The notes beneath the pieces are model-generated. The model was not told the DNA's origin and did no database searches. It saw only the letters and a list, made by a program, of their open reading frames with translations. A program made the position numbers and the translations under genes. Below are positions 24,015-63,787 of a DNA stretch of 64,000 nucleotides, piece after piece. The stretch's first letter is position 1; each line of letters begins with the position of its first letter. Source of the DNA: Rhodocyclaceae bacterium (GTDB taxonomy: Bacteria; Pseudomonadota; Gammaproteobacteria; Burkholderiales; Rhodocyclaceae); NCBI GenBank assembly GCA_013791905.1, contig VMSX01000030.1, positions 476,044-540,043 on the forward strand, given 5' to 3'.

Positions 24015-24088
24015 GGCGCGATGGCAGAGTGGTTATGCAGCGGCCTGCAAAGCCGTGTACCTCGGTTCGATTCCGGGTCGCGCCTCCA
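24015..24088 (+). tRNA. tRNA-Cys (GCA), prophage target gene
   Basis: 74 nt with encoded CCA. Acceptor GGCGCGA/TCGCGCC, anticodon loop CTGCAAA (GCA), T-arm CGGTTCGATTCCG. Its 3' part from the anticodon stem onward is duplicated at 63431, so the intact copy is kept at the left prophage junction. Confidence 0.97.
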
Positions 24089-24092
24089 AATA
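24041..24092 (+). repeat. attL, left prophage attachment site
   Basis: 52 bp identical to 63431-63482, spanning the tRNA-Cys from the anticodon stem to 4 bp beyond the CCA. Flanking bases differ on both sides, which sets the repeat limits. Confidence 0.95.
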
Positions 24093-24142: not shown

Positions 24143-24255
24143 GCGGTTTTGCTTGCTAAAAGGTGGGGAAACGGGGCAGAATGTGGCAAAAGCCACCCGC
24201 AAAAGGTGGCATTCCACCCGGAATATGGAGGATTGTCCGTGTACGCGAGTTTGTC

Positions 24256-25371
24256 ATGGCGATGAAAAGGCGCAAGGCCGGTGCCTGGGAATACTGCATC
24301 AAGCGCCAGGGCCTGCTGCCGCGCCCGGTGTATTTGAGATTCAAGGATGAGGCCGAGGGTGACGCCTATATCGCGCGCCTTGAAAAGCTGCTTGATGCCG
24401 GGCAGGTGCCGCCCGAGTTCGCGCGTGCCGCCGATGCGCCGGTGACAATTGGCGAGGCGATCGACAGTTATTGCGTCAAGGTATCTGTGCCGGATTCGGA
24501 TGAGCGCGTGCTGATCTCGATGGGCAAGTCCATCGGCAATGTGGCGCTGTCGCAGATCGATTACGCATGGGGCGAGCGTTTCGTGAAGTCGGCCAAGCAG
24601 GTCGGGCAGCTTGCGCCTTCGACGATCCGCCACCAGGTCGGGGCGATGGCGCGCATGTTCGACTTTCTGTTGCGCCGTGGTGAGTTGGTGAGCAACCCGC
24701 TGCGCTTGCTGCCGAAGGGGTATGCCAGTTACACGCCGGGCGATTCGGCGGTGCTGGCGGCCATTGGCAAGGATGCGCGAGAGGATCAGTCACGCGATCG
24801 GCGCATGAGCGTAGACGAGGAAGCGGCCATCCGGCGCATCTTTGATTTCGAGAAGCCGGAAGGCAAGGAGCGGGCCTTTGCCTTGCCCGAGCGCGACAAA
24901 CTGCTGCTGCTGTTCGATCTGGCGCTTGAGACCGCCATGCGCTTGCGGGAGTGCTACACGCTGACGCTTGACCAGATCGATCTGCCACGCCGCACGATCT
25001 TTCTGGATAGGACGAAGAACGGCGACAATCGCCAGGTGCCGCTGTCGAGCGTGGCGGTCAAGGCGCTTGAACCATACGGAGGAGACGCGCGCAATGGTCT
25101 GGTGTTCCCTTGGTGGGATGGCGACCCGTCCGAGGCGTCGCTGCGGCGCACGACATCCCGACTATCGCGCGCCTTCGCGCGGATCGCCGATGCGGCCGGC
25201 TGCGGCGACTTGCGCTTTCATGACTTGCGCCACGAGGCGACTAGCCGCCTGTTTGAGAAAACAACGCTATCGGAGTTCGAGATTGCCAAGATCACCGGCC
25301 ATCGCAGCCCGCGCATGCTGATGCGCTACGCCAATTTGCGCGGATCCAATCTCGCTGAAAAACTGTGGTGA
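24256..25371 (+). CDS. int: Phage tyrosine integrase
   Basis: Catalyses site-specific integration into and excision from tRNA-Cys. 371 residues from the ATG at 24256 (MAMKRRKAGAWEYCIKRQG); a longer frame from 24163 is possible. An N-terminal arm-binding and SAM-like core domain covers about 1-170. The catalytic domain has the first arginine in ETAMRLRECYTL, then HDLRHEATSRLF, TGHRSP and the nucleophile tyrosine in MLMRYANL. Reads inward from attL, the usual place for this integrase type. It is unrelated in detail to the second recombinase at 62085. Confidence 0.93.
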   Translation: MAMKRRKAGAWEYCIKRQGLLPRPVYLRFKDEAEGDAYIARLEKLLDAGQVPPEFARAADAPVTIGEAIDSYCVKVSVPDSDERVLISMGKSIGNVALSQIDYAWGERFVKSAKQVGQLAPSTIRHQVGAMARMFDFLLRRGELVSNPLRLLPKGYASYTPGDSAVLAAIGKDAREDQSRDRRMSVDEEAAIRRIFDFEKPEGKERAFALPERDKLLLLFDLALETAMRLRECYTLTLDQIDLPRRTIFLDRTKNGDNRQVPLSSVAVKALEPYGGDARNGLVFPWWDGDPSEASLRRTTSRLSRAFARIADAAGCGDLRFHDLRHEATSRLFEKTTLSEFEIAKITGHRSPRMLMRYANLRGSNLAEKLW

Positions 25372-41459: not shown

Positions 41460-43562
41460 TCAGGCGGTCAGGACGTCTTTCATGGCGGCGAAGCTGGCCA
41501 CACGGCGCACGGCGATATCGACGTCTTGCAGGGCAACGACGCGCTTGGTGCCGGCTGTCGCGCCGCTGTAGGGGTCGAGGATCATGTCGAGGCCGCCCCA
41601 CATACCGATGAGCAGGTCGGCCCAGTTGCCGTAGGCGATGGCCGAGCAGACGCCGGTGCTGGTGCCTTTGTCGAGGGTGGATGGCATGCTGTTGGTAACG
41701 ACGGCGTCGTAGCCGAGCACGTCGCCGATGCCGCGTTCGCTGCCGCTGGTCCAGACTGCCTTGCCGTTGGTGCTGGCGAATTCCTGCGTTTTACGCAGGG
41801 TGCCGCGAACCTTGGCGTTGGTGCAATATGCCATGGAGCCCGCATCGGCGTTGGCGATGGCGACAGCGGATTCGAGGTCGACCATGTGTGCGTAGGTTGG
41901 CGCGAGGCCGTTGGTGCCGCCGGCGACGGAGCCGATGCCGGAGGTGTTAAGCAGGCCAGTGGGCTGGTTGCTTGAACCGCTGCCGTTGAGGGCAGCGAGC
42001 TGCAGGGCCTGGCCGATCTGCATGGCGAGGTCGGCGCGCACAAAGGCTTCGACGTCGACGGAGCTTTGCAGCAGCAGGCGGCGGGAATAGTCTGTCCAGG
42101 CGCCGACGGTCTTGGGTGTCAGTGTGACCTGGCCGACGGTTTGCTGCGATTCGGTCACCGCGCCGTTTTCAGCGACCCAGTAGGTGGTGGCGGCGCCGGT
42201 TTGATTGGGAATGGCGATGTTGCCGTTTAGATCGCGCAGCCAGGTGATGCCCAACTTGTCGAGCACCATGGCGTTGCGCAGCAGGTTGATGAAGCTGGAG
42301 CCGAGCAGCTCGGTGGCGACGAGGTTGCCACCAGCGCCAGCCGTTCCAGCGACGAGGTCGCGGTACATGACAGACATGTCGGCGCTGCCACGCTGGGCGC
42401 GGGCGATCAGGTTGCTGGCGATGGCTTTTGCCATGCCGTCGTTGAGCGCGATGCCGCGTGTCAGCACGTCGATGGGGATGGTGATGGCGGCTTCGCGGGT
42501 CTTGTCGCGGCTGTCGCCGCGCTTGTCTTGCGCGGCGCGCGAGCATTCCATTTCAAACGGGGCATGCTTGGCGGCGTGCAGCGGGTCGGCAGCGGCCAGC
42601 AGGGCGCGGCAGAAGCTGAACTGCTCGACGTCTTTTTTGCTCATGCCGATCTCGGGCGATTCGGCGGGACGCAGCGCGCCATTATCAACCAGCTTGTCGA
42701 GGGCAAACTTGCGGAATGCGTCGGTGCTGGCGCCGGATTCGATGGCTTTGTCGGCATCGCCTTCGAGCTTGAACTGGCGGCCAATGGCCTGAATTTCCCG
42801 CATGCGGTCGCGTTCGGCGAGCAGCGGATCGGGACCGCTGGTGGCGGCGCGGGTGGCGGTTTGGGGTTCTGCCGCCGGAGGATTGGTGACTGCTTGATTC
42901 ATGGAGTGTTCTCCTTGGGTTGTTTGCCCGGCGGGCGTGAGGTCCACCACGCGATAACGCGGGGCAGAGGCTTCTGTTTGCTGATCTGCGGCGCGGCCTA
43001 GGCCAACGGTGGCGTCGGCGGGGATGTCGACCAGCGAGATTTCAAAGGGCGTCCAGTTGCTGACGCGATATTCGTCCGGCTCGCCTTTGCTGGGCGCGGC
43101 CTTGGTGAGCATGCGTTCGTTGATCTGGTAGCCGATGGAGACGTTGCGCACCAGGCCGTCGGCGATGTCTTGCCGCAGGTCGGCCAGCGCGTCGCGGCGG
43201 CTGATGACGATATCGGCGCGCAGCTGATCGCCTTCGATCCAGGCACGCTCGACGGCGCCGATGCTGGCGAGCGGCGTATTGCCGACGGCCATGTGGCGGT
43301 CATGGTTGGCAAGCACCGGGGCGCCGCCGTTGAGGCGGTCGAGCTCGATTTCGCCGGATTTGTGGCCGAGCACTTCAACCCACGGATCATCGAACCAACT
43401 TTGCCGCAGGTATGGCGTCTCGGATGAAACGGACAATTGCAGCCGCAGGCGGCCGTCGCTGGCCTGGTCTGGCGCGGCCTCGCGGATTACGAGGGTGGCG
43501 GGCAGGCTGCGGTGCAGGGTGCCGTCGATGCGGCTCTTACTGCCAAGGGCGTGTTTTGTCAT
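41460..43562 (-). CDS. Fused HK97-type prohead protease and major capsid protein
   Basis: 700 residues. About 1-190 is an S78 prohead protease with H87 (LANHDRHMAVG) and S142 (VRNVSIGYQIN) as catalytic residues. A flexible Pro/Thr/Ala linker with an internal ATG (MNQAVTNPP, near 220) leads to the HK97-fold capsid domain (about 410-700; GAGGNLVATELL, AAIAYGNWADLLIGMWGG). Between them lies the scaffold-like delta region. Start ATG 43562 is chosen because its spacing from the dyad element equals that of two other genes. Fusion implies self-cleavage during head maturation. Confidence 0.92.
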   Translation of the reverse strand: MTKHALGSKSRIDGTLHRSLPATLVIREAAPDQASDGRLRLQLSVSSETPYLRQSWFDDPWVEVLGHKSGEIELDRLNGGAPVLANHDRHMAVGNTPLASIGAVERAWIEGDQLRADIVISRRDALADLRQDIADGLVRNVSIGYQINERMLTKAAPSKGEPDEYRVSNWTPFEISLVDIPADATVGLGRAADQQTEASAPRYRVVDLTPAGQTTQGEHSMNQAVTNPPAAEPQTATRAATSGPDPLLAERDRMREIQAIGRQFKLEGDADKAIESGASTDAFRKFALDKLVDNGALRPAESPEIGMSKKDVEQFSFCRALLAAADPLHAAKHAPFEMECSRAAQDKRGDSRDKTREAAITIPIDVLTRGIALNDGMAKAIASNLIARAQRGSADMSVMYRDLVAGTAGAGGNLVATELLGSSFINLLRNAMVLDKLGITWLRDLNGNIAIPNQTGAATTYWVAENGAVTESQQTVGQVTLTPKTVGAWTDYSRRLLLQSSVDVEAFVRADLAMQIGQALQLAALNGSGSSNQPTGLLNTSGIGSVAGGTNGLAPTYAHMVDLESAVAIANADAGSMAYCTNAKVRGTLRKTQEFASTNGKAVWTSGSERGIGDVLGYDAVVTNSMPSTLDKGTSTGVCSAIAYGNWADLLIGMWGGLDMILDPYSGATAGTKRVVALQDVDIAVRRVASFAAMKDVLTA

Positions 43563-43566
43563 GGCG

Positions 43567-45309
43567 TCAGTCTCCATTTGAAGGCGCGACATAACTACCG
43601 GAAGAATGTCGCCGCATTGGGTGGGCATGCTCACGCACGGCGACGAGCGGCGCGCGGCGGATGGTTTTGTTGGCTGTTTTCGGGTCGACCTCTTCGTCTT
43701 GATCGGCCGGGTCTGTGGTGTCTCCGGCGTCGTCTCCGGCGTCGTCTTCGGCCGGCACGTCCTGCGGCGCGGCGGCGTCGATCAGCCCGAAGATTTCTTC
43801 TTCGGCGTCGATTTCGGCGAATACTTCGTCGGGGTCTTCGCCGCGCTCGAGGATCAGGCGGCGGCGGCTGGTGAGCTTTAAGCGCAGGTTGGTTTCGTTG
43901 GCGTTGGCTTCTTTGACGGGGTCGATGCCGGCCCAGCGACGCGGCTGCCAACTGACGGCGGCGAGGTAGTTGGCAACGCGAGACATATCCAGCCCCGGCG
44001 TGGCCAGCACGATGCCGGGCAGCGCGGCGGTGATTATTTCGTCATGCAGCCAGGCGCGCAGCATGCCCTGCATGGCTTTGAAGTGTTCGCGCTCGCTGAC
44101 GATGCCAACGCGGGCGCTTGAATAATTGACGGATTCGAGGTCGTTGCCGAGGCTGACGTAGCTCATGCCGCGCGCGGCAGACCAGCCGCGCAGCTGCTGC
44201 TTGACGTAGCTGCCCGATTCGATGGTCGGCCATTTGGATTCGTAGGGCCGGAAGTCGTAGCCGACCGGCAGGGTGTCGTATTGCCCCGGCAGCGTGGTGG
44301 CGTATTTTTCGGCGGCGGCGGTGATGGCCTGCACTTCGTCCGTCGTGAGCACCTTGCCGGATGCCTTGGCGCTTTCGAGCACGCCGGAAATGATGGTGTC
44401 GGCGAAGCCGCGCGGGGCTTCGCCGTCCGGGCTGACAAAGAACCCCTGGCGCTTGGCCGCGTTGCTGCTGGCGACGGCGGCGGATTCTTCGAAGTCGTGC
44501 AACATCCAGAGCCGGCGGGCGCCGCCGGAGAGTTCCGGGTAGCCGCGCAACTGGCCGACTTCATGGCGAATGAAGCGATGGCGGATCTGCGTGGCTGGCA
44601 CGCGGATGTGGCGGCCGACGCTAACGAGTTCTGACGGGGCATCGCCGGTTTTATTCATCAGCAGCCAGTAGGCGACCGGGGCGCCGTCGTCGGTGATTTC
44701 GACGCCCATGCGCACGCGTCGGCCTTGCCACTCGCGGTGCAGGCTGACATCGAGCAGCGATGGGTCGAGCATTTGAATCTGGAACTTGAACTGGCCGGCG
44801 AGCGGGCGCATGCGATAGAGCAGTTCGCCATCGACGATCATGCTTTTCAGTGCGAGCGATTCGACTTCGCGCCAGGACAGGCCGGATACGTCGGCTGCAC
44901 TGGACCAGCGCGTGAAGCCGGCTTCGATGCGGTTGTTGTTTGTGGTGTCTGGCGTGCCGTCTCGATGTTTCAGGCGCATCTGCAGGCGCATGCCGGATTC
45001 GCCGAGCACCTGGTCGTCCAGCTGCAGCAGGTAGCCGATGGCCCATTCGTTGTTGCGCGCCATGCCGCGCGCGCGGGCTCGCAGGGTGGGTAGTTGCCGG
45101 GCGAGGTCGTCGTTGATCGGCGCGGCGTTGGTGGGCCATGAATCGGTCCATGCGGGTGTTTCGGCGGCTTCGAAGCTGCGGCGGGCGGTGCGTATTTCGG
45201 CGAGGAAGTGCTGCTGCGCCTGCGCGGCGGCGCCGCTGACGGCCTGGTCGAGCCAGGCGGCACGCTCGGCGGACGTCTCACGCTTGAATAGCTTGTCGAG
45301 GAAGCCCAT
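43567..45309 (-). CDS. Portal protein, lambda gpB family
   Basis: 580 residues from the ATG at 45309 (MGFLDKLFKRETSAER). Portal landmarks: ARARGMARNNEWAIGYLLQLDDQVLG, the AYWLLM strand set, FIRHEVGQLRGYPEL and AARGMSYVSLGNDLESVNYSSARVG. Forms the dodecameric DNA gate. The last codons run through dyad element copy 2, so that regulatory-looking sequence encodes part of the C-terminus. Confidence 0.92.
   Translation of the reverse strand: MGFLDKLFKRETSAERAAWLDQAVSGAAAQAQQHFLAEIRTARRSFEAAETPAWTDSWPTNAAPINDDLARQLPTLRARARGMARNNEWAIGYLLQLDDQVLGESGMRLQMRLKHRDGTPDTTNNNRIEAGFTRWSSAADVSGLSWREVESLALKSMIVDGELLYRMRPLAGQFKFQIQMLDPSLLDVSLHREWQGRRVRMGVEITDDGAPVAYWLLMNKTGDAPSELVSVGRHIRVPATQIRHRFIRHEVGQLRGYPELSGGARRLWMLHDFEESAAVASSNAAKRQGFFVSPDGEAPRGFADTIISGVLESAKASGKVLTTDEVQAITAAAEKYATTLPGQYDTLPVGYDFRPYESKWPTIESGSYVKQQLRGWSAARGMSYVSLGNDLESVNYSSARVGIVSEREHFKAMQGMLRAWLHDEIITAALPGIVLATPGLDMSRVANYLAAVSWQPRRWAGIDPVKEANANETNLRLKLTSRRRLILERGEDPDEVFAEIDAEEEIFGLIDAAAPQDVPAEDDAGDDAGDTTDPADQDEEVDPKTANKTIRRAPLVAVREHAHPMRRHSSGSYVAPSNGD
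43586..43612 (-). repeat. 27-bp dyad element, copy 2
   Basis: Same arms and core as copies 1 and 3 with one substitution in the interior. Lies inside the last codons of the portal gene, 23 nt before the capsid ATG. Confidence 0.8.
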
Positions 45310-45311
45310 GG

Positions 45312-45857
45312 TCAAAACCTCACATGCACGCGGCCGGGCGTGCCGCCATGCAGCAGCGCGGCGAGCGCGCGTTCGTTGGCGACTTCGCGCTTGTAGTGCG
45401 CAATGAGGTCGGTGATTTCTGTGGCGGTGCGGAATTTCATGCGCCGCCCGGCGATGTCGTATTCGGCGACATGCACCTTGCCGCCAGCGACATAGGCGGC
45501 CAGCGCGGCTTCGGCATCGGCCAGCCCCTTGACGGCCTGGCTGCGGCCGTCGAAGGTTTCGGCGGCCTGCAGGTTGGGCAGGATGGCGACGGCCTGCTGG
45601 TCGAGCGTGACGCGCTCCGCGCCCTTCTCTACCCACGACAGCAGTGTTGCGGCCCCGGCCGTCCAGTCGGTGGTGGCACTGGCGGCCAGGCTGACGGCAT
45701 GAAGGTCGCCTGCGGCAGCGGTGCTGATGGCAACCGCGGCGCCGCCGGCCCAGAGCATTCGATATTTGAGCGCCCAGCCGGCGCTGGCTGGGTAGGCCGG
45801 CAGATCAGCCTCCCAGGAAACCGAGTCCCCGGCGCGAAACGTGGTGGGTGCAGTCAT
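45312..45857 (-). CDS. Head-tail joining protein with a gpW-like C-terminus
   Basis: 181 residues. The first 110 form a beta-rich domain (GDSVSWEADLPAYPASAGW); the last 60 (YDIAGRRMKFRTATEITDLIAHYKREVANE) resemble lambda gpW, which sits at the same genome position between terminase and portal. Probably a head completion protein with an extra N-terminal domain. Start is 24 nt downstream of dyad element copy 3. Confidence 0.65.
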   Translation of the reverse strand: MTAPTTFRAGDSVSWEADLPAYPASAGWALKYRMLWAGGAAVAISTAAAGDLHAVSLAASATTDWTAGAATLLSWVEKGAERVTLDQQAVAILPNLQAAETFDGRSQAVKGLADAEAALAAYVAGGKVHVAEYDIAGRRMKFRTATEITDLIAHYKREVANERALAALLHGGTPGRVHVRF

Positions 45858-45909: not shown

Positions 45910-46173
45910 TCAGCGCAAGCGCTTGAGCCGCTGGGCATGGCGCACGCTGACGCCGAGCTTGGCGGCAAGCGTCTGACTGTCAAGGTCGGCGTCGAGCTGG
46001 GCGAGCAGTTCGAGCCGCGCGCGCTTGCGGCTGACGGCATTGACATATAAGGTGCTGGCGCCGAAGCGCAGTCCGGCCAGCAGGGTAAAGCGGTCCCAAA
46101 CTTCCGGCGGCACGTCGGATATTTCGCGCCGGGCGATGTCGATCAGGTCGCGCAGGTTGTCAGTGTTGGCCAT
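45910..46173 (-). CDS. Small helix-turn-helix phage protein
   Basis: 87 residues. The C-terminal third (SQTLAAKLGVSVRHAQRLKRL) is a clear helix-turn-helix. It is encoded between terminase and the first head gene, overlapping the terminase end by 14 bp. Could be a late-gene regulator; the dyad element right downstream is a conceivable target, but that is speculation. Confidence 0.6.
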   Translation of the reverse strand: MANTDNLRDLIDIARREISDVPPEVWDRFTLLAGLRFGASTLYVNAVSRKRARLELLAQLDADLDSQTLAAKLGVSVRHAQRLKRLR

Positions 46174-48310
46174 GACGCTGCAGGCGGCGGTCGCGGATCA
46201 TGGCGGCGAGGCGGGTTTGCGCCAGGCTTGGCAGTTCGATGGCGACCGCCGTCTCGCCAGCGCCGACTTTTTCGGCTTCCTCATCCTCCTGTTCCGGTGC
46301 AGACGTCTCCACGGGATCAACTGGCAGCAGCGCGCCCTGGCGCAACCGCAGTTCGGCGATGTCCCATTGCGCCGGGCGGCGCAGGTGCAGGCGCAGGTGG
46401 CGCGAGAGCCAAAGACAAACAACCGTACAGTCGAGACCCTCCTGGCGGCGGTCGGTGCGCGCCTTCCAGGTGCGCCGCTTGGGGTTGTTGCGGCTGGGTA
46501 CCTTGATTTCAGAGAGCAACTGCTCGTAAAAATCGGCGCGCACATCCTGATACCAGTGCATGCGGCCTGGGCCGTTGCCGGCCAGGCGCACGCGCCCGCC
46601 TTCCTGCGCCCAGCCGAGGACCAGGTCCTTGGCCTTGGCCGCGCCAATGATGTGAATTAGCACCCCATATCTGCTCGCCTTCGTGCTGCGATGGTTCGGG
46701 TCGATGGGTTTGGGCGGGGTCCATATCTCAATACGGCCTTCGGCATCGGACGCACCTTTGGTGGCCACCACCGGGCGGCCGGGGCGATTGTGTCTGCGCA
46801 CAAAGCTGTAAGCAGCATCGGAGGTCTGTCCGTCGCCGCAGTCGATACCGCAGGCGGCGAGCGGCAGTTGCGCGCCGCTGGCGTGCGTGACGCTGCGGGC
46901 GAGCAGCTGCTCAAGCTCGATCCAGGCGCCGGCATGGGCAACGACGGTCTGGCCGTATAGCTCGCCCCAGTACGCCAGCCACATTTCCTCGCCGCGGCCG
47001 ACGACCCAGACGGTGACGGCGAGGCGATCGTGCTGCACGTCGACGCCGACAATCGGCATCAGCCCGCCGGCGGGCACGTGCCATTCGAGGTAGGCTTCGG
47101 CGCGCTGGCGAAGTTCGTCTTCTTCGGGCAGTTCGCCGGAGTACTCCCAGCAGATGCCGCGCGTGGCGTTCCAGAAGGCGACCATCTCGGTGGGGTCGCC
47201 GTGGTCCATCAGGTGCTGGGCGCGCAGGAATTTCTCGGCGAGCACGGCGATGCGCGAGCCATCGAAGACGCTCTGCAGCTCGTTGAGGAAGAAGCCGGGG
47301 TCGGCGGCCTCGGCGGTCGGTTCCCAGCCGTAGAGTGGAGCCACGCGCGCCGCGGCGCGGATGTTGGCGATGCGCTCGTCGTCGCTCCACTGCCCGCCGC
47401 AGTGCGGGCATGAATAGTAGGCGTCTTCGTGGCGGGCGCGGCCATACACTTCGCGCTCCGGCCGGCGGGCATCGAGGTCGGGCGCGGCCAGCTCTTCGGG
47501 CGTGAGGTTGAGGCCGGGGATGGTGACGTGCGCCCATTCGACCTCATGGCGATCGCCGCAGTGATGGCAGGCGACCAGGAAGCGGCGCTGGTCGGTGGTG
47601 CGCATTTCCTTTTCGACTTCGCTGGCGCCCTTGGCGGTGGGCGTGCCGCCGATCAGCTCGAAGTTGTCGCGGATCGCCTTGCCGCGCTCGCGCAACAGCG
47701 CGATCGAGTTGCCCTGGCCCTTGACGTCCTTGTTCGAATCGTCCGGCTCTTCGACATAGCGCACCTTGGCGCTGGTCGATTTCACGTCGGCGGGCGAGTT
47801 GGAGGCGACGAACTTGAGCAGCCCGCCTGGGTAGTGCTTGCGCGTGGCGCTGTTGCCATCGCTGCGGCTCTTCAGCCGGATGCTCTTCGCCAGCACCGGA
47901 GTGGCGCGCACCATCGGCGCGAACTTCTCGGCGTCGAAATCCTTGGCCGACTTCTCGCGAGGGAACATCGCCACCTGCACGCAGGGCTTCCAGTGGGTGT
48001 AATAGCCCATCATCGTGCAGACCACGCCGCCGGTCCAGGCGATCTGCGCCGGCTTCTGCGCCACCACGCGGCTCACGCCTTTCTGCCCGCAGGCCGCCAG
48101 CACGCCGCGCAGCACCGGGATGTTGTCGAGATCGAACTTGCCGGCGTAGTCGGGGTTCTCTTCTGACGATAGGCGGCGATACTTCTCGACCCACTCGATC
48201 GGGGAGAGGGGCGGGCGCGGGCGCAGATACGAACGGACGCGGCCCAGCATGGCGTCGAGCGCCTGCGTGGCCCAGGTCTCGACGTCATCAGCCAGCGCCG
48301 CCGGGTTCAA
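46160..48310 (-). CDS. Terminase large subunit, GpA family
   Basis: 716 residues. N-terminal ATPase region with WVEKYRRLSSEENPDYAGK and the HWKPCVQVAMFPREKSAKDF block, a zinc ribbon (CHHCGDRHEVEW and CPHCGGQWSDDE), and the nuclease part with IVGVDVQHDRLAVTVWVVG. Packages DNA through the portal; GpA-type enzymes cut at cos sites, so cohesive ends are likely. Four-base overlap with the small subunit gene. Confidence 0.93.
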   Translation of the reverse strand: MNPAALADDVETWATQALDAMLGRVRSYLRPRPPLSPIEWVEKYRRLSSEENPDYAGKFDLDNIPVLRGVLAACGQKGVSRVVAQKPAQIAWTGGVVCTMMGYYTHWKPCVQVAMFPREKSAKDFDAEKFAPMVRATPVLAKSIRLKSRSDGNSATRKHYPGGLLKFVASNSPADVKSTSAKVRYVEEPDDSNKDVKGQGNSIALLRERGKAIRDNFELIGGTPTAKGASEVEKEMRTTDQRRFLVACHHCGDRHEVEWAHVTIPGLNLTPEELAAPDLDARRPEREVYGRARHEDAYYSCPHCGGQWSDDERIANIRAAARVAPLYGWEPTAEAADPGFFLNELQSVFDGSRIAVLAEKFLRAQHLMDHGDPTEMVAFWNATRGICWEYSGELPEEDELRQRAEAYLEWHVPAGGLMPIVGVDVQHDRLAVTVWVVGRGEEMWLAYWGELYGQTVVAHAGAWIELEQLLARSVTHASGAQLPLAACGIDCGDGQTSDAAYSFVRRHNRPGRPVVATKGASDAEGRIEIWTPPKPIDPNHRSTKASRYGVLIHIIGAAKAKDLVLGWAQEGGRVRLAGNGPGRMHWYQDVRADFYEQLLSEIKVPSRNNPKRRTWKARTDRRQEGLDCTVVCLWLSRHLRLHLRRPAQWDIAELRLRQGALLPVDPVETSAPEQEDEEAEKVGAGETAVAIELPSLAQTRLAAMIRDRRLQRHGQH

Positions 48311-55211: not shown

Positions 55212-55241
55212 TTGACAGTCTTAGTTAAGCGGGACTATACT
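55212..55241 (+). promoter_or_regulatory. Sigma70-type promoter of the rightward operon
   Basis: TTGACA at 55212-55217 and TATACT at 55236-55241 with an 18-bp spacer; GGAGG lies 8 bp before the first ATG at 55273. Genes from here to 63418 are all on the plus strand and closely packed, so this is the best candidate to drive the cassette array too. Confidence 0.7.
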
Positions 55242-55272
55242 CGCCTCAGGTACTCACCCACCGGAGGCGCAA

Positions 55273-56009: not shown

Positions 56010-56016
56010 TGCCGCG

Positions 56017-56217: not shown

Positions 56218-56238
56218 CACCACTTACCGGAGAACCCC

Positions 56239-58266: not shown

Positions 58267-58286
58267 TTTCAACTGAAAGGATAACC

Positions 58287-58715
58287 ATGCTCCTCACCGG
58301 AATAGCGCGCCTCGGCCGCGACTGCGAACTGCGCTACCTGCCCGACGGCACCGCCGTCGCCAATCTGGCCCTGGCCTTCAACTACGGCGCCAAGGCCGCC
58401 GACGGCAAGCGCCCGACGCAATGGCTCGACGGCGCCATCTTTGGCAAGCGCGCCGAGGCCCTCAAGCCGCACCTGCTCAAGGGCACCGCGCTCGGCGTCA
58501 CGCTGTCCGACCCGCACATCGAAACCTTTGCGCGCAAGGACGGCACGCGCGGCGAGAAACTCGTCGGCCGCATCATCGACCTGGAATTCGCCGGAGGCGC
58601 AGCCCAGCCCGCCCAGCCCACGAACACGACGGCCCCCGCCGCTGCACCAGCTGCCTCGCCCAGTGCGCCAGCAGCAGGTGGGTTCAATGACTTTGAAGAC
58701 GACGTGCCCTTCTAG
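58287..58715 (+). CDS. ssb: Single-stranded DNA-binding protein
   Basis: 142 residues. OB-fold region 1-105 (GIARLGRDCELRYLPDGTAVANLALAF; WLDGAIFGKRAEAL), a Pro/Ala/Thr linker and the SSB acidic tip DFEDDVPF. Protects single-stranded phage DNA. It is also of interest because folded single-stranded attC sites in the array downstream are substrates that SSB influences in known integrons. Confidence 0.92.
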   Translation: MLLTGIARLGRDCELRYLPDGTAVANLALAFNYGAKAADGKRPTQWLDGAIFGKRAEALKPHLLKGTALGVTLSDPHIETFARKDGTRGEKLVGRIIDLEFAGGAAQPAQPTNTTAPAAAPAASPSAPAAGGFNDFEDDVPF

Positions 58716-58716
58716 G

Positions 58717-59010: not shown

Positions 59011-59011
59011 T

Positions 59012-59215
59012 ATGCCTGACACCGATGACGCTTATAGGCTCGGCGCTGCCGCATACAAGAACGACAGAACACTATCTGAAAACCCGTTTGATTCTGGTGA
59101 TTCTAGGTTTGATGAATGGGAAGACGGCTGGAGTGAAGCGCTTGATGCGGAGTTGCTCAACGCCGGAGTTCAGGCCGCGCCGCTTCGCGGCGTCGCGCCT
59201 GGAACGGATAGTTAG
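59012..59215 (+). CDS. Cassette 1 gene, small acidic protein
   Basis: 67 residues (MPDTDDAYRLGAAAYKNDRT, DSRFDEWEDGWSEALDAEL). AAAGGA 8 bp before the ATG. The C-terminal 18 residues are encoded by attC1 and the stop TAG lies in its R' box. Resembles small acidic phage proteins of unknown role with a GxxAxxxG-DEW pattern. No matching 5' boundary is seen upstream, so this may be a fixed first cassette. Confidence 0.6.
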   Translation: MPDTDDAYRLGAAAYKNDRTLSENPFDSGDSRFDEWEDGWSEALDAELLNAGVQAAPLRGVAPGTDS

Positions 59216-59217
59216 CC
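59155..59217 (+). repeat. attC1
   Basis: 63 bp. R'' GCTCAAC, R' GTTAGCC. Inner arms GTTCAGG and CCTGGAAC pair with an unpaired base offset, and a GCCGC-GCGGC stem closes the loop. Confidence 0.85.
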
Positions 59218-59240
59218 GGAACGCCCGGCAGAGAGGATTG

Positions 59241-59549
59241 ATGATGGCTGTAGTAATCCAACTGACGCAAGAGCAATGGGAGGCGCTGACGATTGAGCGC
59301 GCAAAGCTCGGCGAAATGGAAGTGGCAAAGGCTCCGGGGATGATGATCGCCCAAGTGTTCGGCGACCACATGAAGGTGGCAGTGATCGACAACGATAAGG
59401 CGCGTGCTATCCAGCGAGCGTTCGGAGTAGCGAACGATGGGAAGACATGTCGCACGGCCTACGATGTGCCGGCTAACGACAAAGCTCATGGGAGATGCGC
59501 GGATTCATGCGCCGAATCCCCTGCAGCGGCGGGTTCGGCGGCTGATTGA
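59241..59549 (+). CDS. Cassette 2 gene, unknown function
   Basis: 102 residues from MMAVVIQLTQEQWEAL. Helical-beta core (MMIAQVFGDHMKVAVIDNDKA) and a tail from about residue 77 encoded by attC2, so only the first 76 residues are likely to be functional. AGAGGA 7 bp before the ATG. No family recognised. Confidence 0.6.
   Translation: MMAVVIQLTQEQWEALTIERAKLGEMEVAKAPGMMIAQVFGDHMKVAVIDNDKARAIQRAFGVANDGKTCRTAYDVPANDKAHGRCADSCAESPAAAGSAAD
59471..59539 (+). repeat. attC2
   Basis: 69 bp. R'' GGCTAAC mirrors the cassette start GTTAGCC; with flanks, CCGGCTAAC against GTTAGCCGG (9 bp). R' is GTTCGGC. GGATTC/GAATCC forms the inner stem. Confidence 0.85.
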
Positions 59550-59561
59550 TCGGAGAAAGAA

Positions 59562-59828
59562 ATGACAGATGGCGAAAAAGAACTGTACATAGCCGCCGTT
59601 ACTGCTGGGCTAGTGGCAGAATTTTGCGAACTTTATGCGAGCGGTAAGCGATACCGCTGGTTGCGCGAAAACCCTGCATGGGTTGGTTATGACGCAGATT
59701 ACAGGCCAGATCAGATCGACATGGCGATTGATCACGCGATGACTCAGCCGCCGAACGATGCAGTTCAGGGGAGCAAGCCGGCCTCATCGGCGCAGCTTCC
59801 CGCTGGAACGGAGGGTTCGACACCATGA
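59562..59828 (+). CDS. Cassette 3 gene, unknown function
   Basis: 88 residues (MTDGEKELYIAAVTAGLVAE, YRWLRENPAWVGYDADYRPD). The pattern CELYASGKRYRWLRENP is common in small phage proteins. Tail encoded by attC3; the stop overlaps the next ATG by 4 bp. GGAGAAAGAA lies before the ATG. Confidence 0.65.
   Translation: MTDGEKELYIAAVTAGLVAEFCELYASGKRYRWLRENPAWVGYDADYRPDQIDMAIDHAMTQPPNDAVQGSKPASSAQLPAGTEGSTP
59750..59821 (+). repeat. attC3
   Basis: 72 bp. R'' with flank GCCGCCGAAC is the exact complement of cassette 3's start GTTCGGCGGC (10 bp). R' GTTCGAC. Inner arms GTTCAG and CTGGAAC with one extra base on the left arm, and GGGAGC/GCTTCCC. Confidence 0.88.
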
Positions 59829-60100
59829 GTTTTAGAGGATACAGACAGGCAAGCCGCGTCGACTGGGGCAAAGAAGAATCAAAAGGCTGCACACTTGAGC
59901 AGATAAACACTGGTGCCTTTCTTCGCATCGCGGACGCAACCGAGAAGATGGCCGAGCGACACACTGAACTGATACGGCAGCGAGACTACCTCGATGGCGA
60001 GGTAAAGCGCCTGCGGGCTATCCGCGAGCATTTGGAGCGCAGCAATGCAAGCCTTCGTGGGCATCTGAAAAGGGCGAAGAAGGTGGTGTCGAACGCCTGA
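59825..60100 (+). CDS. Cassette 4 gene, small coiled-coil protein
   Basis: 91 residues (MSFRGYRQASRVDWGKEESK), then a long charged helix ATEKMAERHTELIRQRDYLD to the end, probably a coiled coil. The ATG is only 9 bp inside the cassette; its GGAGGG ribosome site (59810) lies in the preceding attC. Stop just after the R'' box of attC4. Confidence 0.65.
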   Translation: MSFRGYRQASRVDWGKEESKGCTLEQINTGAFLRIADATEKMAERHTELIRQRDYLDGEVKRLRAIREHLERSNASLRGHLKRAKKVVSNA

Positions 60101-60154
60101 AATAACCGGCGTGCCGGCATTATCGGCACGTCCGCGTTGATTGATTAGTTGGGC
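60088..60154 (+). repeat. attC4
   Basis: 67 bp. R'' with flank GGTGTCGAAC complements cassette 4's start GTTCGACACC (10 bp). R' GTTGGGC. GTGCCG/CGGCAC closes the hairpin. Confidence 0.85.
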
Positions 60155-60172
60155 CTTTTGCGGAGAAAGATC

Positions 60173-60364
60173 ATGGCAGAACGCTGGCTTGAATGTTCCA
60201 CTTGTTGCACAACAATCGTTATTCCCGACGTCCTCGCCACAGTGAAATGGGTGGACGGCGATCCGATATGCCCGACGTGCGGAAATCCGGCGCGGTACTA
60301 CGACGTTCAAGAAGTCGGCGCTGACGACACGGCGGACACAGGAGGACTGAATGCAAGCAGCTAA
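60173..60364 (+). CDS. Cassette 5 gene a, zinc-ribbon protein
   Basis: 63 residues with CSTCC and CPTCG pairs, the layout of a small zinc ribbon (MAERWLECSTCCTTIVIP). GGAGAAAGATC lies before the ATG. Overlaps gene b by 14 bp. Function unknown. Confidence 0.6.
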   Translation: MAERWLECSTCCTTIVIPDVLATVKWVDGDPICPTCGNPARYYDVQEVGADDTADTGGLNASS

Positions 60365-60668
60365 CTACGCCCCAATTTACGCGGCCTGTCTCTACCCTGA
60401 ATTGGCTGAATCGTTTCGAGTCAAAGGCTGGGCGTTGGCAGTGCATGGGAGCCTTGCACGGGACTTTGATCTAGTAGCTATCCCGTGGCACCACGAGCCG
60501 GTAGCGCCGCAGCGGTGCGTGGATGGCATCTGCCACTATCACGGACTAACGCAGGTAGGGCCGGCAGTCACAAAGCTGCACGGGCGGCAGGTATTCGCGC
60601 TTGCGCTCAAATTCGGTGAGTGCTTCCTCGACCTATCGTTCATGCCGACCGAGAGGCCCAACGCCTGA
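60351..60668 (+). CDS. Cassette 5 gene b, phage-like protein of unknown function
   Basis: 105 residues. ESFRVKGWALAVHGSLARDFDLVAIPW has the look of a small nucleotidyltransferase-like core (GSLARDFDLV, resembling a GS-x-DxD signature), but the second acidic residue set is not clear. Ends RPNA with its last codons in attC5. Second gene of a two-gene cassette. Confidence 0.6.
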   Translation: MQAANYAPIYAACLYPELAESFRVKGWALAVHGSLARDFDLVAIPWHHEPVAPQRCVDGICHYHGLTQVGPAVTKLHGRQVFALALKFGECFLDLSFMPTERPNA

Positions 60669-60718
60669 ATTCACAGGCGGGCGGCTTTTCGCCCGTCCTG
60701 TGGAATGACGGGTTAGGT
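60656..60718 (+). repeat. attC5
   Basis: 63 bp and the most canonical site: R'' GCCCAAC fits RYYYAAC and R' GTTAGGT fits GTTRRRY. R'' with flank AGGCCCAAC complements cassette 5's start (9 bp). Inner arms CACAGG/CCTGTG and GGGCG/CGCCC. Confidence 0.92.
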
Positions 60719-60725
60719 GACGGCG

Positions 60726-61127
60726 ATGGCATACGCGAACAAGGACGATTACAAGAAGTGGTACATGGCGAACCGCGAACGGCTGATTGCGAAGGCCAGG
60801 GCGGCAGATTTGGCAAACCCAGATCTGGCTGCTCAAAGGAAACGCGAGTATGCGGAGCGGCACCCGGACAGAGTGAAGGATGCAGGACGCCGTTACTCGC
60901 GGAAACCGGAAGCACTGGCGAAACAACGCGCACTAAAAGCGAAGCCAGAGCAGCGGGAGAAGGCAAAGCTGTTGCGAGAACACTACCGCGACACGCTGCA
61001 CGATTGTTTTGTGCGCCGATGCTTGGCGCAACACCTGAAGATAAAAGGCAGCGAGATACCGCAAACACTGGTTGATGCACACCGAGAACTGTTGAGACTG
61101 AAAAGGGCGATAAATGAAAAACTGTGA
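60726..61127 (+). CDS. Cassette 6 gene a, HNH-associated-type basic protein
   Basis: 133 residues, very basic. The N-terminal repeats DDYKKWYMANRERLIAKARA and REYAERHPDRVKDAGRRYSR resemble the Lys/Arg-rich helical lead of phage HNH proteins, but no HNH motif is present. The ATG at 60726 has AGGTGA from the attC5 R' box as its ribosome site; a GTG at 60717 is the alternative. Confidence 0.55.
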   Translation: MAYANKDDYKKWYMANRERLIAKARAADLANPDLAAQRKREYAERHPDRVKDAGRRYSRKPEALAKQRALKAKPEQREKAKLLREHYRDTLHDCFVRRCLAQHLKIKGSEIPQTLVDAHRELLRLKRAINEKL

Positions 61128-61359
61128 CGAACTGCGAACTGAACTTGCTCTGACCTTTGAGAAGTTGAAGGCCGGAGAAATCAAGCCCGGAGAAGCCGCA
61201 GAACTGGCGAACCTTGCAGGGAAGATGATTGGAAGCGCCAAGGTGCAAGTGGAGTATTACGCGCTGCGGAAAGAGCAGCCGCGCATCGAGTGGCTTGAGT
61301 CACCTAACGTAGAGCTAAGGGGCGGGCCGGCGGTTTCATCGCCGGAACGTCCCGCTTGA
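61114..61359 (+). CDS. Cassette 6 gene b, small helical protein
   Basis: 81 residues. MKNCDELRTELALTFEKLKAGEIKPGEAAELANLAGKM-type (residues 1-38) helical layout is common in phages, with IGSAKVQVEYYALRKEQPRI after it. The tail from about residue 63 is encoded by attC6. Overlaps gene a by 14 bp. Confidence 0.65.
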   Translation: MKNCDELRTELALTFEKLKAGEIKPGEAAELANLAGKMIGSAKVQVEYYALRKEQPRIEWLESPNVELRGGPAVSSPERPA

Positions 61360-61373
61360 GCGCCGGGTTGGCC
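61302..61373 (+). repeat. attC6
   Basis: 72 bp. R'' ACCTAAC with flank (GTCACCTAAC) complements cassette 6's start GTTAGGTGAC (10 bp). R' GTTGGCC. Inner arms GCTAAG/CTTGAGC region and CCGGCG/CGCCGG. Confidence 0.88.
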
Positions 61374-61388
61374 GGCGAGGAGGTTGCT

Positions 61389-61625
61389 ATGGATGATGAG
61401 TACGAATGGTCGGATGCGCGGTGCCCGAAGTGCCAGCACTCCCCTACGCACATGCGAACCTGCACTAGCCTTGGCTGTGACGACGGCTGTTTCGATGAGT
61501 ACGAGGACGACCCCATCAACGCGCTGCCCGGTGAATTCTCGATCTGCGCGGAGTGCGGCGGGACAGGGATTGAGCATTGGTGCCCCAAGTGCGGCCACGA
61601 CATGAACACGACGGCCAACGCATAG
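61389..61625 (+). CDS. Cassette 7 gene, zinc-ribbon protein
   Basis: 78 residues (MDDEYEWSDARCPKCQHSPT). Cysteine pairs CPKC, CAECG and CPKCG suggest two zinc ribbons around an acidic DDGCFDEYEDD stretch. AGGAGG 8 bp before the ATG. Stops in the attC7 R'' region. Confidence 0.65.
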   Translation: MDDEYEWSDARCPKCQHSPTHMRTCTSLGCDDGCFDEYEDDPINALPGEFSICAECGGTGIEHWCPKCGHDMNTTANA

Positions 61626-61681
61626 GTAAGCGGCCTTCGCCGGCCTTATGGCGAAGGTCGCGCTTGACCGACGGGTTATGC
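61613..61681 (+). repeat. attC7
   Basis: 69 bp. R'' CGGCCAAC complements cassette 7's start GTTGGCCG (8 bp). R' GTTATGC. Inner arms CCTTCGCC/GGCGAAGG. Confidence 0.88.
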
Positions 61682-61709
61682 CCCGGCGGAACTGAGAAAA
61701 GGAACTGTG

Positions 61710-62054
61710 ATGGATGACTTTTACTGCCCGACATGCCGCGCCGCGCCACTGATAACAGACTACTGCCCCGCATGCTCACGCATACCCACACCGGGCATTG
61801 ACGCATGGGTGAAGGGGTTGCCAGAGTATGACGCCGACCGCGAAAAGGTGAGTCTGCGGCTGAAGGTGCGTCACCTTCTGGATGTCCTCGAAAGCATAGC
61901 CAACGCCGACCCGAGCAAGTGGGAGCCGGACATGCGCGACCAGTTCCAACAATGGGCGCAGAACCGGGCAAGGCACACGATTGAGAAAGTCGGCGCTGGC
62001 ACCGCGGCGACCGAGGGGCATAACTTAAATTCTCCGACACCCACAGACGGTTAA
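61710..62054 (+). CDS. Cassette 8 gene, zinc-ribbon protein
   Basis: 114 residues with an N-terminal zinc ribbon CPTC ... CPACS (about 6-24), then a charged helical region (VSLRLKVRHLLDVLESIAN). GGAA precedes the ATG; a GTG three bases earlier is possible. The tail is encoded by the truncated attC8. Confidence 0.6.
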   Translation: MDDFYCPTCRAAPLITDYCPACSRIPTPGIDAWVKGLPEYDADREKVSLRLKVRHLLDVLESIANADPSKWEPDMRDQFQQWAQNRARHTIEKVGAGTAATEGHNLNSPTPTDG

Positions 62055-62056
62055 CG
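62018..62056 (+). repeat. attC8, truncated or atypical
   Basis: R'' with flank GGGGCATAAC complements cassette 8's start GTTATGCCCC (10 bp), proving the left half. After about 25 bp a GTTAACG follows, but no inner arm pairing is seen, so the right half seems lost or replaced next to intI. Confidence 0.65.
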
Positions 62057-62084
62057 CAGCACAAAACCACAGAGGGCCGCACCA

Positions 62085-63113
62085 ATGCTCACACTTGAAA
62101 AACCAAACGCGACAAGCGCGCCGGCGTTACCCGACACGGAACACCAGCAGCCGAAGCTGCTCGACCGCATGCGCGCGGCCATCCGTGTGCTGCACTATTC
62201 GCTGGCCACCGAGCGAAACTACATCCATTGGGCCAAGCGCTTCATTTACTTCCACGGCAAGCGCCACCCGAAGGACATGGGCGCCGCCGAAGTCGAGGCA
62301 TTTCTTTCCGATCTAGCTACCGGGCGCAACGTCAGTGCCAGCACGCAGAACCAGGCCATGCACGCGCTGCTGTTCCTCTACCGAAACGTACTCGGCATCA
62401 CCCTACCCTGGCTCGACGGTATCACCCGCGCCAAAGTATCGAAGCGCCTGCCATCCGTGCTCACAATCGCCGAGACGCAAGCCCTGCTGCGCAAGCTGCC
62501 CGACGACACCAATGGCCTGATCGTCCGGCTGCTCTACGGCACCGGCATGCGCATCAAGGAATGCCTGCGGCTACGCGTCAAGGACGTGGACTTTGCCCGG
62601 CACCAGATAACCATCCGCGAAGGCAAGGGCGGCAAGGATCGCGTCACCATGCTGCCCAACGCACTGGTGCCGGCGCTGGAAGCACACATCATCGAACGCC
62701 GCCGAATTCACGACGTCGACCTCGCCACCGGGCATGCCGATGTCGAGCTGCCCGACGCCATCGATCGCAAATACCCGAAGGCCGCCATGGAGTGGGCCTG
62801 GCAATACATCTTCGCCGCGCCAAGCTACAGCACCGACCCGCGCACCGGCGCATACCGCCGGCATCACTGGGGCGAGCGCAATATACAGCGCGCCGTGAAG
62901 TCCGCCGCCAGCGCCGCCGGAATCCACAAGCTGGTGCATCCCCACACGCTGCGTCATTCCTTCGCCACACACCTACTCGAAGCGGGGCACGACATCCGCA
63001 CCGGTCAGGAGCTGCTGGGACATTCCGACGTCAGCACCACGATGATTTATACCCACGTCCTCAACAAGGGCGGGCATGGCGTCACCAGCCCGCTAGATCG
63101 GATCACACTATGA
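62085..63113 (+). CDS. intI: Integron integrase (IntI-type tyrosine recombinase)
   Basis: 342 residues. Tyrosine recombinase with R156 ([17 protein letters not shown]), H287 and R290 ([14 protein letters not shown]), H313 ([10 protein letters not shown]) and nucleophile Y322 (MIYTHVL). The insertion unique to integron integrases is present at about 221-262 ([20 protein letters not shown] and STDPRTG then RRHH). The C-terminus [12 protein letters not shown] is also IntI-like. It binds folded single-stranded attC. Located at the 3' end of the array and in the same direction; no separate promoter or LexA box was seen, so it is probably read with the cassettes. An HTH gene overlaps its stop. Confidence 0.95.
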
Positions 63114-63418
63114 AAACCCACACCCTGGACACCGCCGCCGAACTGCTGGCCACTGACCCCACCACCGTGCGGGCGCTGATCGAGGACGGCACTATTCCGG
63201 CCGCCAAGATAGGACGCGCGTGGGTTATGATCGAGGATGATCTGGCAGAATATCTGCGGCAGCGCATCCGCGAGCAAACCGCCGAGCGCATCGAAGTGGC
63301 AGCGAGCGGGACGAAGCGCCGCCAGCGTACGGAGGCCAGCCAGACAAGCCGCTATCGCAAGCGCGCCCTGCCCGATCTTTCAGCCATCGGTGGCGATCTT
63401 GCGCAAAGCCAGACATAG
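63110..63418 (+). CDS. Excisionase-like HTH protein
   Basis: 102 residues. N-terminal MerR/excisionase-type helix-turn-helix ([20 protein letters not shown] ... [20 protein letters not shown]) and a basic tail ([18 protein letters not shown]). ATGA overlap with intI makes them a translational pair. Twelve bases before attR. It could be the directionality factor for the phage integrase or a partner of IntI. Confidence 0.7.
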
Positions 63419-63430
63419 ACCAAAACCGAA

Positions 63431-63482
63431 CGGCCTGCAAAGCCGTGTACCTCGGTTCGATTCCGGGTCGCGCCTCCAAATA
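63431..63482 (+). repeat. attR, right prophage attachment site
   Basis: Exact 52-bp copy of 24041-24092 (3' part of tRNA-Cys). No complete tRNA is formed here because the 5' half is replaced by phage DNA. Confidence 0.95.
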
Positions 63483-63487
63483 TATCG

Positions 63488-63725: not shown

Positions 63726-63787
63726 GCCCCGCCCCCCTTGTCCGGCCAGAGGATTCGCCGCTGTGGCCCTGGCCGCTCGGACTTTAA

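What the first reader, a model, noticed from the sequence alone, without database searches (positions are those of the whole stretch)
59012..63113. Integron cassette array carried by a temperate siphovirus-type prophage
Seven complete attC-like sites alternate with small genes and end at a gene for an integron-type integrase, all between ssb and attR of a lambda-like prophage. Integrons are classically known from chromosomes, transposons and plasmids; a phage with its own cassette-capturing unit would be a route for moving cassettes between hosts by infection. The att repeat places the whole array inside the phage.
Basis: partly seen in the sequence, partly recalled or inferred. Interest (0 to 1): 0.96.

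Follow-up and report, generated by a model that had tools for sequence, protein, structure and literature searches.

The report
Phage integron with flipped gene cassettes
A predicted dormant virus in a bacterial genome carries its own integron, a gene-swapping platform, whose gene cassettes read the opposite way from most of those in bacterial integrons; close relatives sit in dozens of viral sequences, and the platform likely lets these viruses trade genes, some of which would help them past bacterial DNA restriction.

Summary
A covariance model trained on attCs of other bacteria finds exactly the seven sites (E 7.5e-11 to 3.1e-6; next hit 1.6). The recombinase is a true IntI, and the array lies inside a 39.4-kb prophage bounded by a 52-bp tRNA-Cys repeat. 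An attI lies 63-67 bp before intI, so the array starts there and runs away from intI, as usual.

Unusual: the cassette genes are inverted relative to their attCs. They point toward intI, along the run ssb, array, intI, xis. The IntI falls in a tree group of 42 viral contigs, the window and 2 MAG contigs. In 28 loci of that kind 71 of 78 resolved cassettes are inverted; in 24 chromosomal integron loci, 5 of 107. Near-identical viral contigs from different samples carry different arrays joined at the same attI base, so cassettes move in nature. Cargo in relatives includes DNA methyltransferases, Mom-like and restriction-alleviation genes.

Integrons in phages were published in 2023. A phage-borne IntI group with its own attI and inverted cassettes appeared in none of nine searches. 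Transcription, enzyme activity and counter-defence function are inferred, not tested.

The parts
24041..24092 (+). attL: 52-bp repeat, 3' end of the tRNA-Cys gene (24015-24088)
   Evidence: exact repeat; tRNA
63431..63482 (+). attR: second copy of the 52-bp repeat
24163..25371 (+). phage's own tyrosine integrase next to attL
   Evidence: phrog_1 E 2.8e-38, phrog_216
46160..48310 (-). large terminase
   Evidence: phrog_15 E 5.1e-148
43567..45636 (-). portal protein
   Evidence: phrog_21
41460..43634 (-). major head protein
   Evidence: phrog_617
33103..35493 (-). tail tape measure protein
   Evidence: phrog_27190
55212..55241 (+). promoter-like site (11 of 12) upstream of the parB-ssb-array-intI run; no plus-strand terminator-like site from 53876 to 63600
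   Evidence: consensus scan only; number of promoter-like sites no better than shuffles
58287..58715 (+). ssb, upstream of the array, same strand as the cassette genes
   Evidence: PF00436 40.4 bits, cut-off 26; NCBIfam ssb models match below their cut-offs
59155..59217 (-). attC of cassette 7 (most distal)
   Evidence: model R1 E 3.6e-7
59471..59539 (-). attC of cassette 6
   Evidence: model R1 E 1.9e-7
59750..59821 (-). attC of cassette 5
   Evidence: model R1 E 3.1e-6
60088..60154 (-). attC of cassette 4
   Evidence: model R1 E 5.5e-7
60656..60718 (-). attC of cassette 3
   Evidence: model R1 E 7.5e-11
61302..61373 (-). attC of cassette 2; 94% identical over 82 bp to an attC stretch of viral locus L030
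   Evidence: model R1 E 1e-9
61613..61681 (-). attC of cassette 1 (next to attI)
   Evidence: model R1 E 5.7e-7
59242..59549 (+). ORF of cassette 7 (inverted relative to its attC)
59562..59828 (+). ORF of cassette 6 (inverted)
59825..60100 (+). ORF of cassette 5 (inverted)
60351..60668 (+). ORF of cassette 4 (inverted); a second small ORF at 60173-60364 with a sub-threshold zinc-ribbon match
60717..61127 (+). ORF of cassette 3 (inverted); 67 homologues, best 96% identity; second ORF 61114-61359
   Evidence: direction unresolved by ORF length alone
61389..61625 (+). ORF of cassette 2 (inverted); 2 homologues at 57-60% beside its own record
   Evidence: direction unresolved by ORF length alone
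61707..62054 (+). ORF of cassette 1 (inverted), ends inside attI
   Evidence: this cassette was not in the script's count
62018..62084 (-). attI: R box facing cassette 1 at 62018-62024, then the phage attI motif AACTTAAATTCNNCGACA, 63 bp before the intI start
62085..63113 (+). intI, 342 aa, six catalytic residues present (R156 K184 H287 R290 H313 Y322)
   Evidence: TIGR02249 450 bits; 2a3v E 8.4e-84 over residues 29-340; residues
63110..63418 (+). excisionase-like gene overlapping the end of intI by four bases
   Evidence: TIGR01764 38.5 bits, cut-off 28.8; phrog_1840

Best explanation
The window holds a predicted prophage with an integron of a phage-borne group (intI, attI and seven attC-bounded cassettes) whose cassette genes point toward intI, inverted relative to their attC sites, so that the phage's own operon, rather than an integron promoter at attI, likely reads the cassettes and then intI. 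Shown by sequence and calls: IntI family and catalytic residues, attI, seven attCs, box register, gene direction, the IntI group, the same inversion in other viral loci, array differences between near-identical viral contigs that begin at attI or inside attCs, and cassettes shared between otherwise different phages. Inferred: (1) transcription from the parB-ssb side runs through the array into intI, so IntI would be made when that operon is on; (2) IntI inserts cassettes at attI as in bacterial integrons; (3) because attC and attI fix the orientation of insertion, only cassettes with an inverted gene would be useful to the phage, so a separate phage cassette pool arose; (4) the cargo seen in relatives (DNA methyltransferases, Mom-like, Lar restriction alleviation, exonuclease, PAPS-reductase-like, DHH phosphoesterase) is a swappable set of DNA-modification and counter-restriction genes. 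The functions of the window's own cassette genes are unknown.
For: IntI. attCs: model R1, built without window or viral sequence, finds exactly the seven, all on the minus strand; in 33 loci (30 viral, 2 MAG contigs, the host's chromosomal L006) 147 of 150 matches lie opposite to intI. Direction with model-called attCs: phage set of 28 loci (25 viral, 2 MAG contigs, window), 104 cassettes: 71 inverted, 7 usual, 26 unresolved; chromosomal set of 24 loci, 122 cassettes: 5 inverted, 102 usual, 15 unresolved. Fisher p 1.9e-36; by locus majority, tallied by hand, 25 to 0 with 1 tie and 2 without a resolved cassette against 1 to 23, p 4e-13. Stem scan: viral 41 inverted, 5 usual, 12 unresolved of 58; others 9, 144, 23 of 176, the two MAG contigs counted there as chromosomal. 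Check of the reading: best plus-strand ORFs of phage cassettes (101) hit 62 PHROG and 14 Pfam families, best minus-strand ORFs (90) 3 and 1. Group. Phage nature: a large terminase of one of three families in 22 of 28 viral records. Natural recombination: L020, L022/L023 and L193 are 99.8-100% identical from the attI base through intI (1.3-2.9 kb) but have three different first cassettes; L030 and L031 differ by cassettes between blocks of 99.0% and 99.9% identity; L008/L031 and L020/L031 share one cassette each at 89% and 86% DNA identity while intI is 76% and 66% identical. Pool: 0 of 102 against 33 of 102 and 22 of 102. attI.
Against: No transcript, excision or virion data. 26 of 104 phage cassettes and 2 of 6 window cassettes are unresolved by ORF length; 7 are in the usual orientation and L035 is mixed (3 to 2). 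The 45-row group has moderate support (84/81) and the root is a midpoint; the nested 31- and 21-row groups have 95/81 and 100/97. L203, in the phage set, sits just outside the 45 rows. One search lists IntI proteins 76-87% identical that sources name from bacterial genomes (a gammaproteobacterial MAG, Thiobacillus denitrificans, Sulfuricella denitrificans, Mizugakiibacter); I could not see their surroundings, so they may be prophages or chromosomal. One further genome of the class has a 71%-identical IntI on the same contig as a terminase; its attCs are weak and its array gave one usual cassette with very short ORFs. A few chromosomal loci have inverted cassettes (5 of 107; L123 2 of 2). L037 and L113 also have attCs downstream of intI. 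Many loci on both sides of the pool test show no array: 44 of 98 chromosomal and 33 of 93 viral loci gave a cassette by the stem scan. The promoter scan found no more sites than expected from shuffles. The window's cassette genes have no known function; the 20 ORFs of relatives annotated singly (7 methyltransferases) were picked for length.
Confidence: 0.8

Rival explanations
1. A stretch of the host's own chromosomal integron was picked up by the prophage, as described for Vibrio phage Va_90-11-286_p16, and means little for the phage.
For: The host has a chromosomal integron with an IntI 64% identical; such capture is published (PMC9892861).
Against: The host's IntI lies outside the phage group; its attI differs; chromosomal cassettes are mostly in the usual orientation; two published phage integrons that I re-scored are also mostly usual: Shewanella M16-3 9 usual, 0 inverted, 1 unresolved of 10; Vibrio p16 10, 2, 1 of 13.
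Confidence: 0.04
2. The inversion is an artefact of ORF calling: the real genes lie on the other strand and the plus-strand ORFs are shadows.
For: ORF length alone leaves 26 of 104 phage cassettes unresolved.
Against: The same procedure gives the usual orientation in chromosomes; plus-strand ORFs hit 62 PHROG families and minus-strand ORFs 3; the ORF of window cassette 3, unresolved by length, has 67 homologues.
Confidence: 0.03
3. A relic: in this prophage the array and intI are carried passively and no longer recombine.
For: No activity was measured, and the turnover evidence comes from relatives, not from the window's own copy.
Against: Intact reading frame and catalytic residues; perfect box register in 7 of 7 cassettes; array turnover among near-identical relatives.
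Confidence: 0.1
4. IntI is the phage's integration enzyme rather than a cassette recombinase.
For: intI sits at the attR end beside xis, where an integrase gene often lies (recalled); the order intI-xis-int recurs (L008, L013, L038, L280).
Against: The prophage has its own integrase at attL, and the att repeat is a tRNA end.
Confidence: 0.03

Closest known systems
Chromosomal integrons of Proteobacteria (IntI up to 67% identical, phage-type hits aside)
   Same: IntI family, attC structure and orientation relative to intI, attI just upstream of intI, R-box register
   Different: Cassette genes run away from intI (102 of 107 resolved); attI reads AACGT in 13 of 16 listed, not AACTTAAATTC
Phage-borne integrons of Qi et al. 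2023 (Vibrio Va_90-11-286_p16, Shewanella M16-3, a P1 isolate; PMC9892861)
   Same: Integron in a temperate phage; methyltransferases among phage cassettes; their suggestion that phages gain counter-restriction genes this way
   Different: IntI below 60% identical to this one; described as taken from a host integron (Vibrio), 95.3% identical to a Shewanella IntI, or class 1 (P1); the two re-scored here have mostly usual orientation
'Reverse' integron of Treponema (PMC3607928, PMC4909258; passages seen)
   Same: intI and cassette genes on the same strand
   Different: There intI is transcribed toward attI; here intI and attI keep the usual layout and the genes are inverted inside the cassettes
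CALINs of virulent phages such as TJE1 (PMC9892861)
   Same: attC arrays in phages
   Different: No intI; model R1 found only one site in the 49,000 bases of TJE1 that I searched, so its gene orientation was not judged

Membership tests
Integron | intI gene with the IntI-specific region and tyrosine recombinase residues | tested here: met
   TIGR02249 450.3 bits, cut-off 265; match to 2a3v over residues 29-340; residues
Integron | attC sites with R and L boxes on one strand | tested here: met
   seven sites, independent model, one strand; box register 7 of 7
Integron | attI next to intI | tested here: met
   R box at 62018-62024 and conserved motif 63 bp before intI; relatives with different arrays become identical from that base
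Integron | recombination activity | not testable with these tools
   natural array turnover in relatives is indirect
Usual bacterial-type integron | cassette genes read in the sense of their attC, away from attI | tested here: not met
   inverted in 4 of 6 scored window cassettes, 2 unresolved; the two unresolved have plus-strand homologues. Chromosomal integrons hold a minority of such cassettes (5 of 107)
Usual bacterial-type integron | Pc promoter at attI/intI driving the array | tested here: inconclusive
   no minus-strand promoter-like site near attI in the scan, but the scan is weak
Usual bacterial-type integron | LexA box at the intI promoter | tested here: inconclusive
   strict box in 2 of 70 loci of the viral set (the window is in the set and has none) and 6 of 83 other loci
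Temperate phage (prophage) | att repeats, integrase, structural genes | tested here: met
Temperate phage (prophage) | inducible, packages the array | not testable with these tools
Reverse (Treponema-type) integron | intI transcribed toward attI | tested here: not met
   attI lies upstream of the intI start codon; definition from a passage of PMC3607928

The most novel reading that the evidence does not exclude
Tailed phages run their own class of integron. It has a phage IntI clade and a phage attI, and its cassettes are built back to front so that the phage's own operon reads them and makes IntI last. The cassettes form a private market of DNA-modification and counter-restriction genes that is traded among unrelated phages and kept apart from the bacterial cassette pool: a viral mirror image of the bacterial integron.
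Probability: 0.6. Interest if true: 0.95.

Novelty: new variant of a known kind. Interest (0 to 1): 0.88.

Why it matters
Integrons are the textbook bacterial system for capturing genes. A phage group that has taken over the recombinase, uses its own attI and has the genes turned round would show that viruses keep a combinatorial store of accessory genes, and could explain how related phages swap counter-restriction genes. It gives a testable rule (gene orientation relative to attC follows the reading promoter, Pc or phage operon), a possible natural barrier between phage and bacterial cassette pools, and a genomic marker (AACTTAAATTC attI before intI) for finding more.

Tried and rejected
Rejected: that attC and intI share a direction. 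My first scanner took the extrahelical base on the wrong side, so I first read the array as running toward intI; the chromosomal control and the independent model corrected this: the attCs are in the usual orientation and the genes are turned. Rejected: a shortened intI-attI gap in phages; the distances overlap once the differing alignment starts are allowed for. Rejected: LexA boxes as a difference. Not supported: a plasmid home of the group; the best-scoring 5000 plasmid records (a capped list) are all below 60% identity. Virus Rctr41k has an IntI-like gene (43.5%) but no convincing attC. Rfam gave no hit for these sites at its gathering cut-offs. Of 46 loci with the attI motif, 20 have no IntI behind it and are probably chance matches.

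Rows left out before counts: one search dropped truncated or stop-bearing IntIs, 11 named outlying rows and chromosomal rows without a resolved array (8 kept by hand); identical proteins were merged. One search was given 31 loci (29 viral, 2 MAG contigs) chosen by me for a usable array side; L029 was left out as a copy of L031. One search was given 24 of the 47 chromosomal loci, and only the best 150 of 201 matches went into. L030 and L031 are the same phage and both count. Searches kept the best 80 of 569 and of 177 matches.
Full report
WHAT IS THERE. The window carries a prophage of about 39.4 kb between two copies of an exact 52-bp repeat, the 3' end of tRNA-Cys (24041-24092 and 63431-63482). 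It has a tyrosine integrase beside attL, tape measure, head, portal and terminase genes, a primase-helicase, a repressor-like gene, a parB-like region and ssb. The array lies between ssb and attR, followed by intI and an excisionase-like gene that overlaps intI by four bases.

attC SITES. A covariance model from 55 attCs of chromosomal integrons of other genomes finds the seven sites at 36-57 bits (E 7.5e-11 to 3.1e-6), all on the minus strand; the next hit in 64 kb has E 1.6. The boxes that bound each cassette are exactly complementary in 7 of 7 cassettes, the last against the attI box; 1 of 5040 orderings does this. The eighth, shortened site is attI.

IntI AND attI. IntI scores 450 bits on the integron-integrase model (cut-off 265), aligns over residues 29-340 with the solved recombinase 2a3v (E 8.4e-84), and has all six catalytic residues (the residue set is recalled). 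The attI motif AACTTAAATTC lies 63 bp before intI. Within 260 bp upstream of intI it is exact in 25 of 73 loci of the viral set (window included) and in 1 of 96 others, that one being a 78%-identical partial IntI in a genome of the same family. The longer motif is in 3 of 150 genomes of the family, own genome included, each with an IntI 63 bp behind it (77, 86 and 100% identity), and in 1 of 369 genomes of the class, the own one. In 13 of 16 chromosomal loci listed, attI reads AACGT.

THE INVERSION. attC orientation relative to intI is the usual one, but the genes are turned. In the window the last plus-strand ORF of each of the seven cassettes stops 7 to 73 bases past the cassette boundary, so the next attC or attI supplies the stop codon (coordinates). 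The script resolves 4 of 6 window cassettes, all inverted; the other two have plus-strand homologues, 67 proteins for cassette 3 and 2 beside its own record for cassette 2; cassette 1 was not scored. With model-called attCs the phage set (28 loci: 25 viral, 2 MAG contigs, window; 104 cassettes) has 71 inverted, 7 usual and 26 unresolved, the chromosomal set (24 loci, 122 cassettes) 5, 102 and 15 (tests). The best plus-strand ORFs of phage cassettes (101) hit 62 PHROG and 14 Pfam families, the best minus-strand ORFs (90) 3 and 1.

A PHAGE GROUP. Two scans of viral contigs gave 55 and 41 further loci (the second kept the best 80 of 177). In the careful tree of 111 IntIs the window falls in a group of 45 rows: 42 viral contigs, the window and 2 MAG contigs (84/81, midpoint root), with nested groups of 31 (95/81) and 21 rows (100/97); an earlier tree of 131 rows has a 31-row group with SH-aLRT 99. 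One of the two MAG contigs carries a terminase beside IntI (G090:C31). Of 28 viral records tested, 16 have GpA-type, 2 Terminase_6N and 4 TerL_ATPase large terminases, 22 in all, so the module sits on different phage types. Apart from phage-type hits, IntIs in 61 relatives and in the genome collection reach 67%; phage records in INPHARED stay below 60% (9 records) and so do the best 5000 plasmid records. A genome of another genus of the family has an 86%-identical IntI with the same attI, followed by xis- and int-like genes. Of 369 genomes of the class, one other has a match at E 1e-143 or better: 71% identity, with a terminase on the same 49-kb contig; its attCs are weak and one cassette scored usual with very short ORFs. 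One search lists proteins 76-87% identical named from bacterial genomes whose surroundings I could not see.

IT RECOMBINES IN NATURE. L020, L022/L023 and L193, from different samples, are 99.8-100% identical from the attI base through intI (1,335 to 2,857 bp) but carry three different first cassettes. L020 and L023 are also 99.9% identical for 7.2 kb on the other side, so 2.75 kb of array in one faces 0.36 kb in the other. L030 and L031 differ by cassettes between a left block of 99.0% (2.1 kb, which includes a cassette) and a right block of 99.9% identity (4.1 kb) that begins ten bases before the attI motif. One cassette is shared by L008 and L031 (89% DNA identity over 467 bp, attC to attC) and another by L020 and L031 (86% over 923 bp), while intI is 76% and 66% identical. 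With search spaces of equal size (1.23 and 1.21 Mb), 0 of 102 phage-array ORFs (94 viral, 6 window, 2 MAG) match one of 98 chromosomal integron loci, 33 match somewhere in another viral locus and 22 match a cassette ORF of another locus; 44 of those 98 loci showed a cassette by the stem scan, 174 in all.

CARGO. Hits of the phage cassettes include Dam-type, N6/N4 and C5 DNA methyltransferases, Mom, Lar restriction alleviation, a 3'-5' exonuclease, PAPS-reductase-like and DHH phosphoesterase proteins. Of 20 long ORFs annotated singly (chosen for length), 7 are methyltransferases. The window's own cassette genes reach no Pfam cut-off (7 of its ORFs scanned).

HOW IT LIKELY WORKS. Inferred: transcription enters from the parB-ssb side, reads the cassettes in order and makes IntI last. 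A promoter-like site at 55212 and the lack of a plus-strand terminator-like site from 53876 to 63600 fit this but prove nothing. IntI would insert cassettes at attI, next to its own gene. Because attC fixes the direction of insertion, a phage that reads the array from the far side can use only cassettes with turned genes, which would keep its pool apart from that of bacteria.

WHAT IS KNOWN. Qi et al. 2023 (PMC9892861; I read parts 1-4 of 7, which hold the main text) screened 10,705 phage genomes and found 3 complete integrons, one lone intI and 17 attC clusters; they noted methyltransferases in phage cassettes and proposed a counter-restriction role. Two of their integrons, re-scored here, have mostly usual orientation. 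The Treponema 'reverse' integron differs (passages). Nine searches (listings seen, passages of a few papers) showed no report of a phage IntI group or of cassettes inverted as a rule; the library holds no preprints and few subscription papers.

Noticed in passing
window 56239-56559 and 56504-58021, plus strand: The parB-like gene of the prophage seems split over two reading frames; natural frameshift or sequencing error not decided.
   Followed up: no
L006 (host contig C20), IntI 9057-10103: The host has a second, chromosomal integron with a BrnT/BrnA-like pair in a cassette (names recalled, not searched); its IntI is 64% identical to the phage one and its attI is different.
   Followed up: partly
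L022, L023, L029-L031, L034 and the window: An ssb gene lies near intI in several phages (tblastn 30-71%); attC recombination uses single-stranded DNA (recalled), so this may not be chance.
   Followed up: no
L037 11610-13038 and L113 11297-11368: attC matches also lie downstream of intI (4 in L037, 1 in L113), which the simple layout does not explain.
   Followed up: no
L233 (KX853513.1) 4680-5678: Virus Rctr41k has an IntI-like gene after a run of small same-strand genes, but no convincing attC by this model.
   Followed up: partly
L201, L215, L059, L220, L222, L224, L216, L217, L223, L225-L228: A second cluster of 13 viral IntI rows (86/91) apart from the main phage group, with few attC arrays seen; L222, L224 and L225 have one inverted cassette each.
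   Followed up: no
window 63488-63787 and 63957 onward: Right of attR lie a HigA-like fragment and the start of an IS110-like transposase (both names from reading the ORFs, not searched).
   Followed up: no
L123 (Halothiobacillus MAG): IntI of chromosomal type with 2 of 2 scored cassettes inverted by the stem scan; could be a prophage or a local exception.
   Followed up: no
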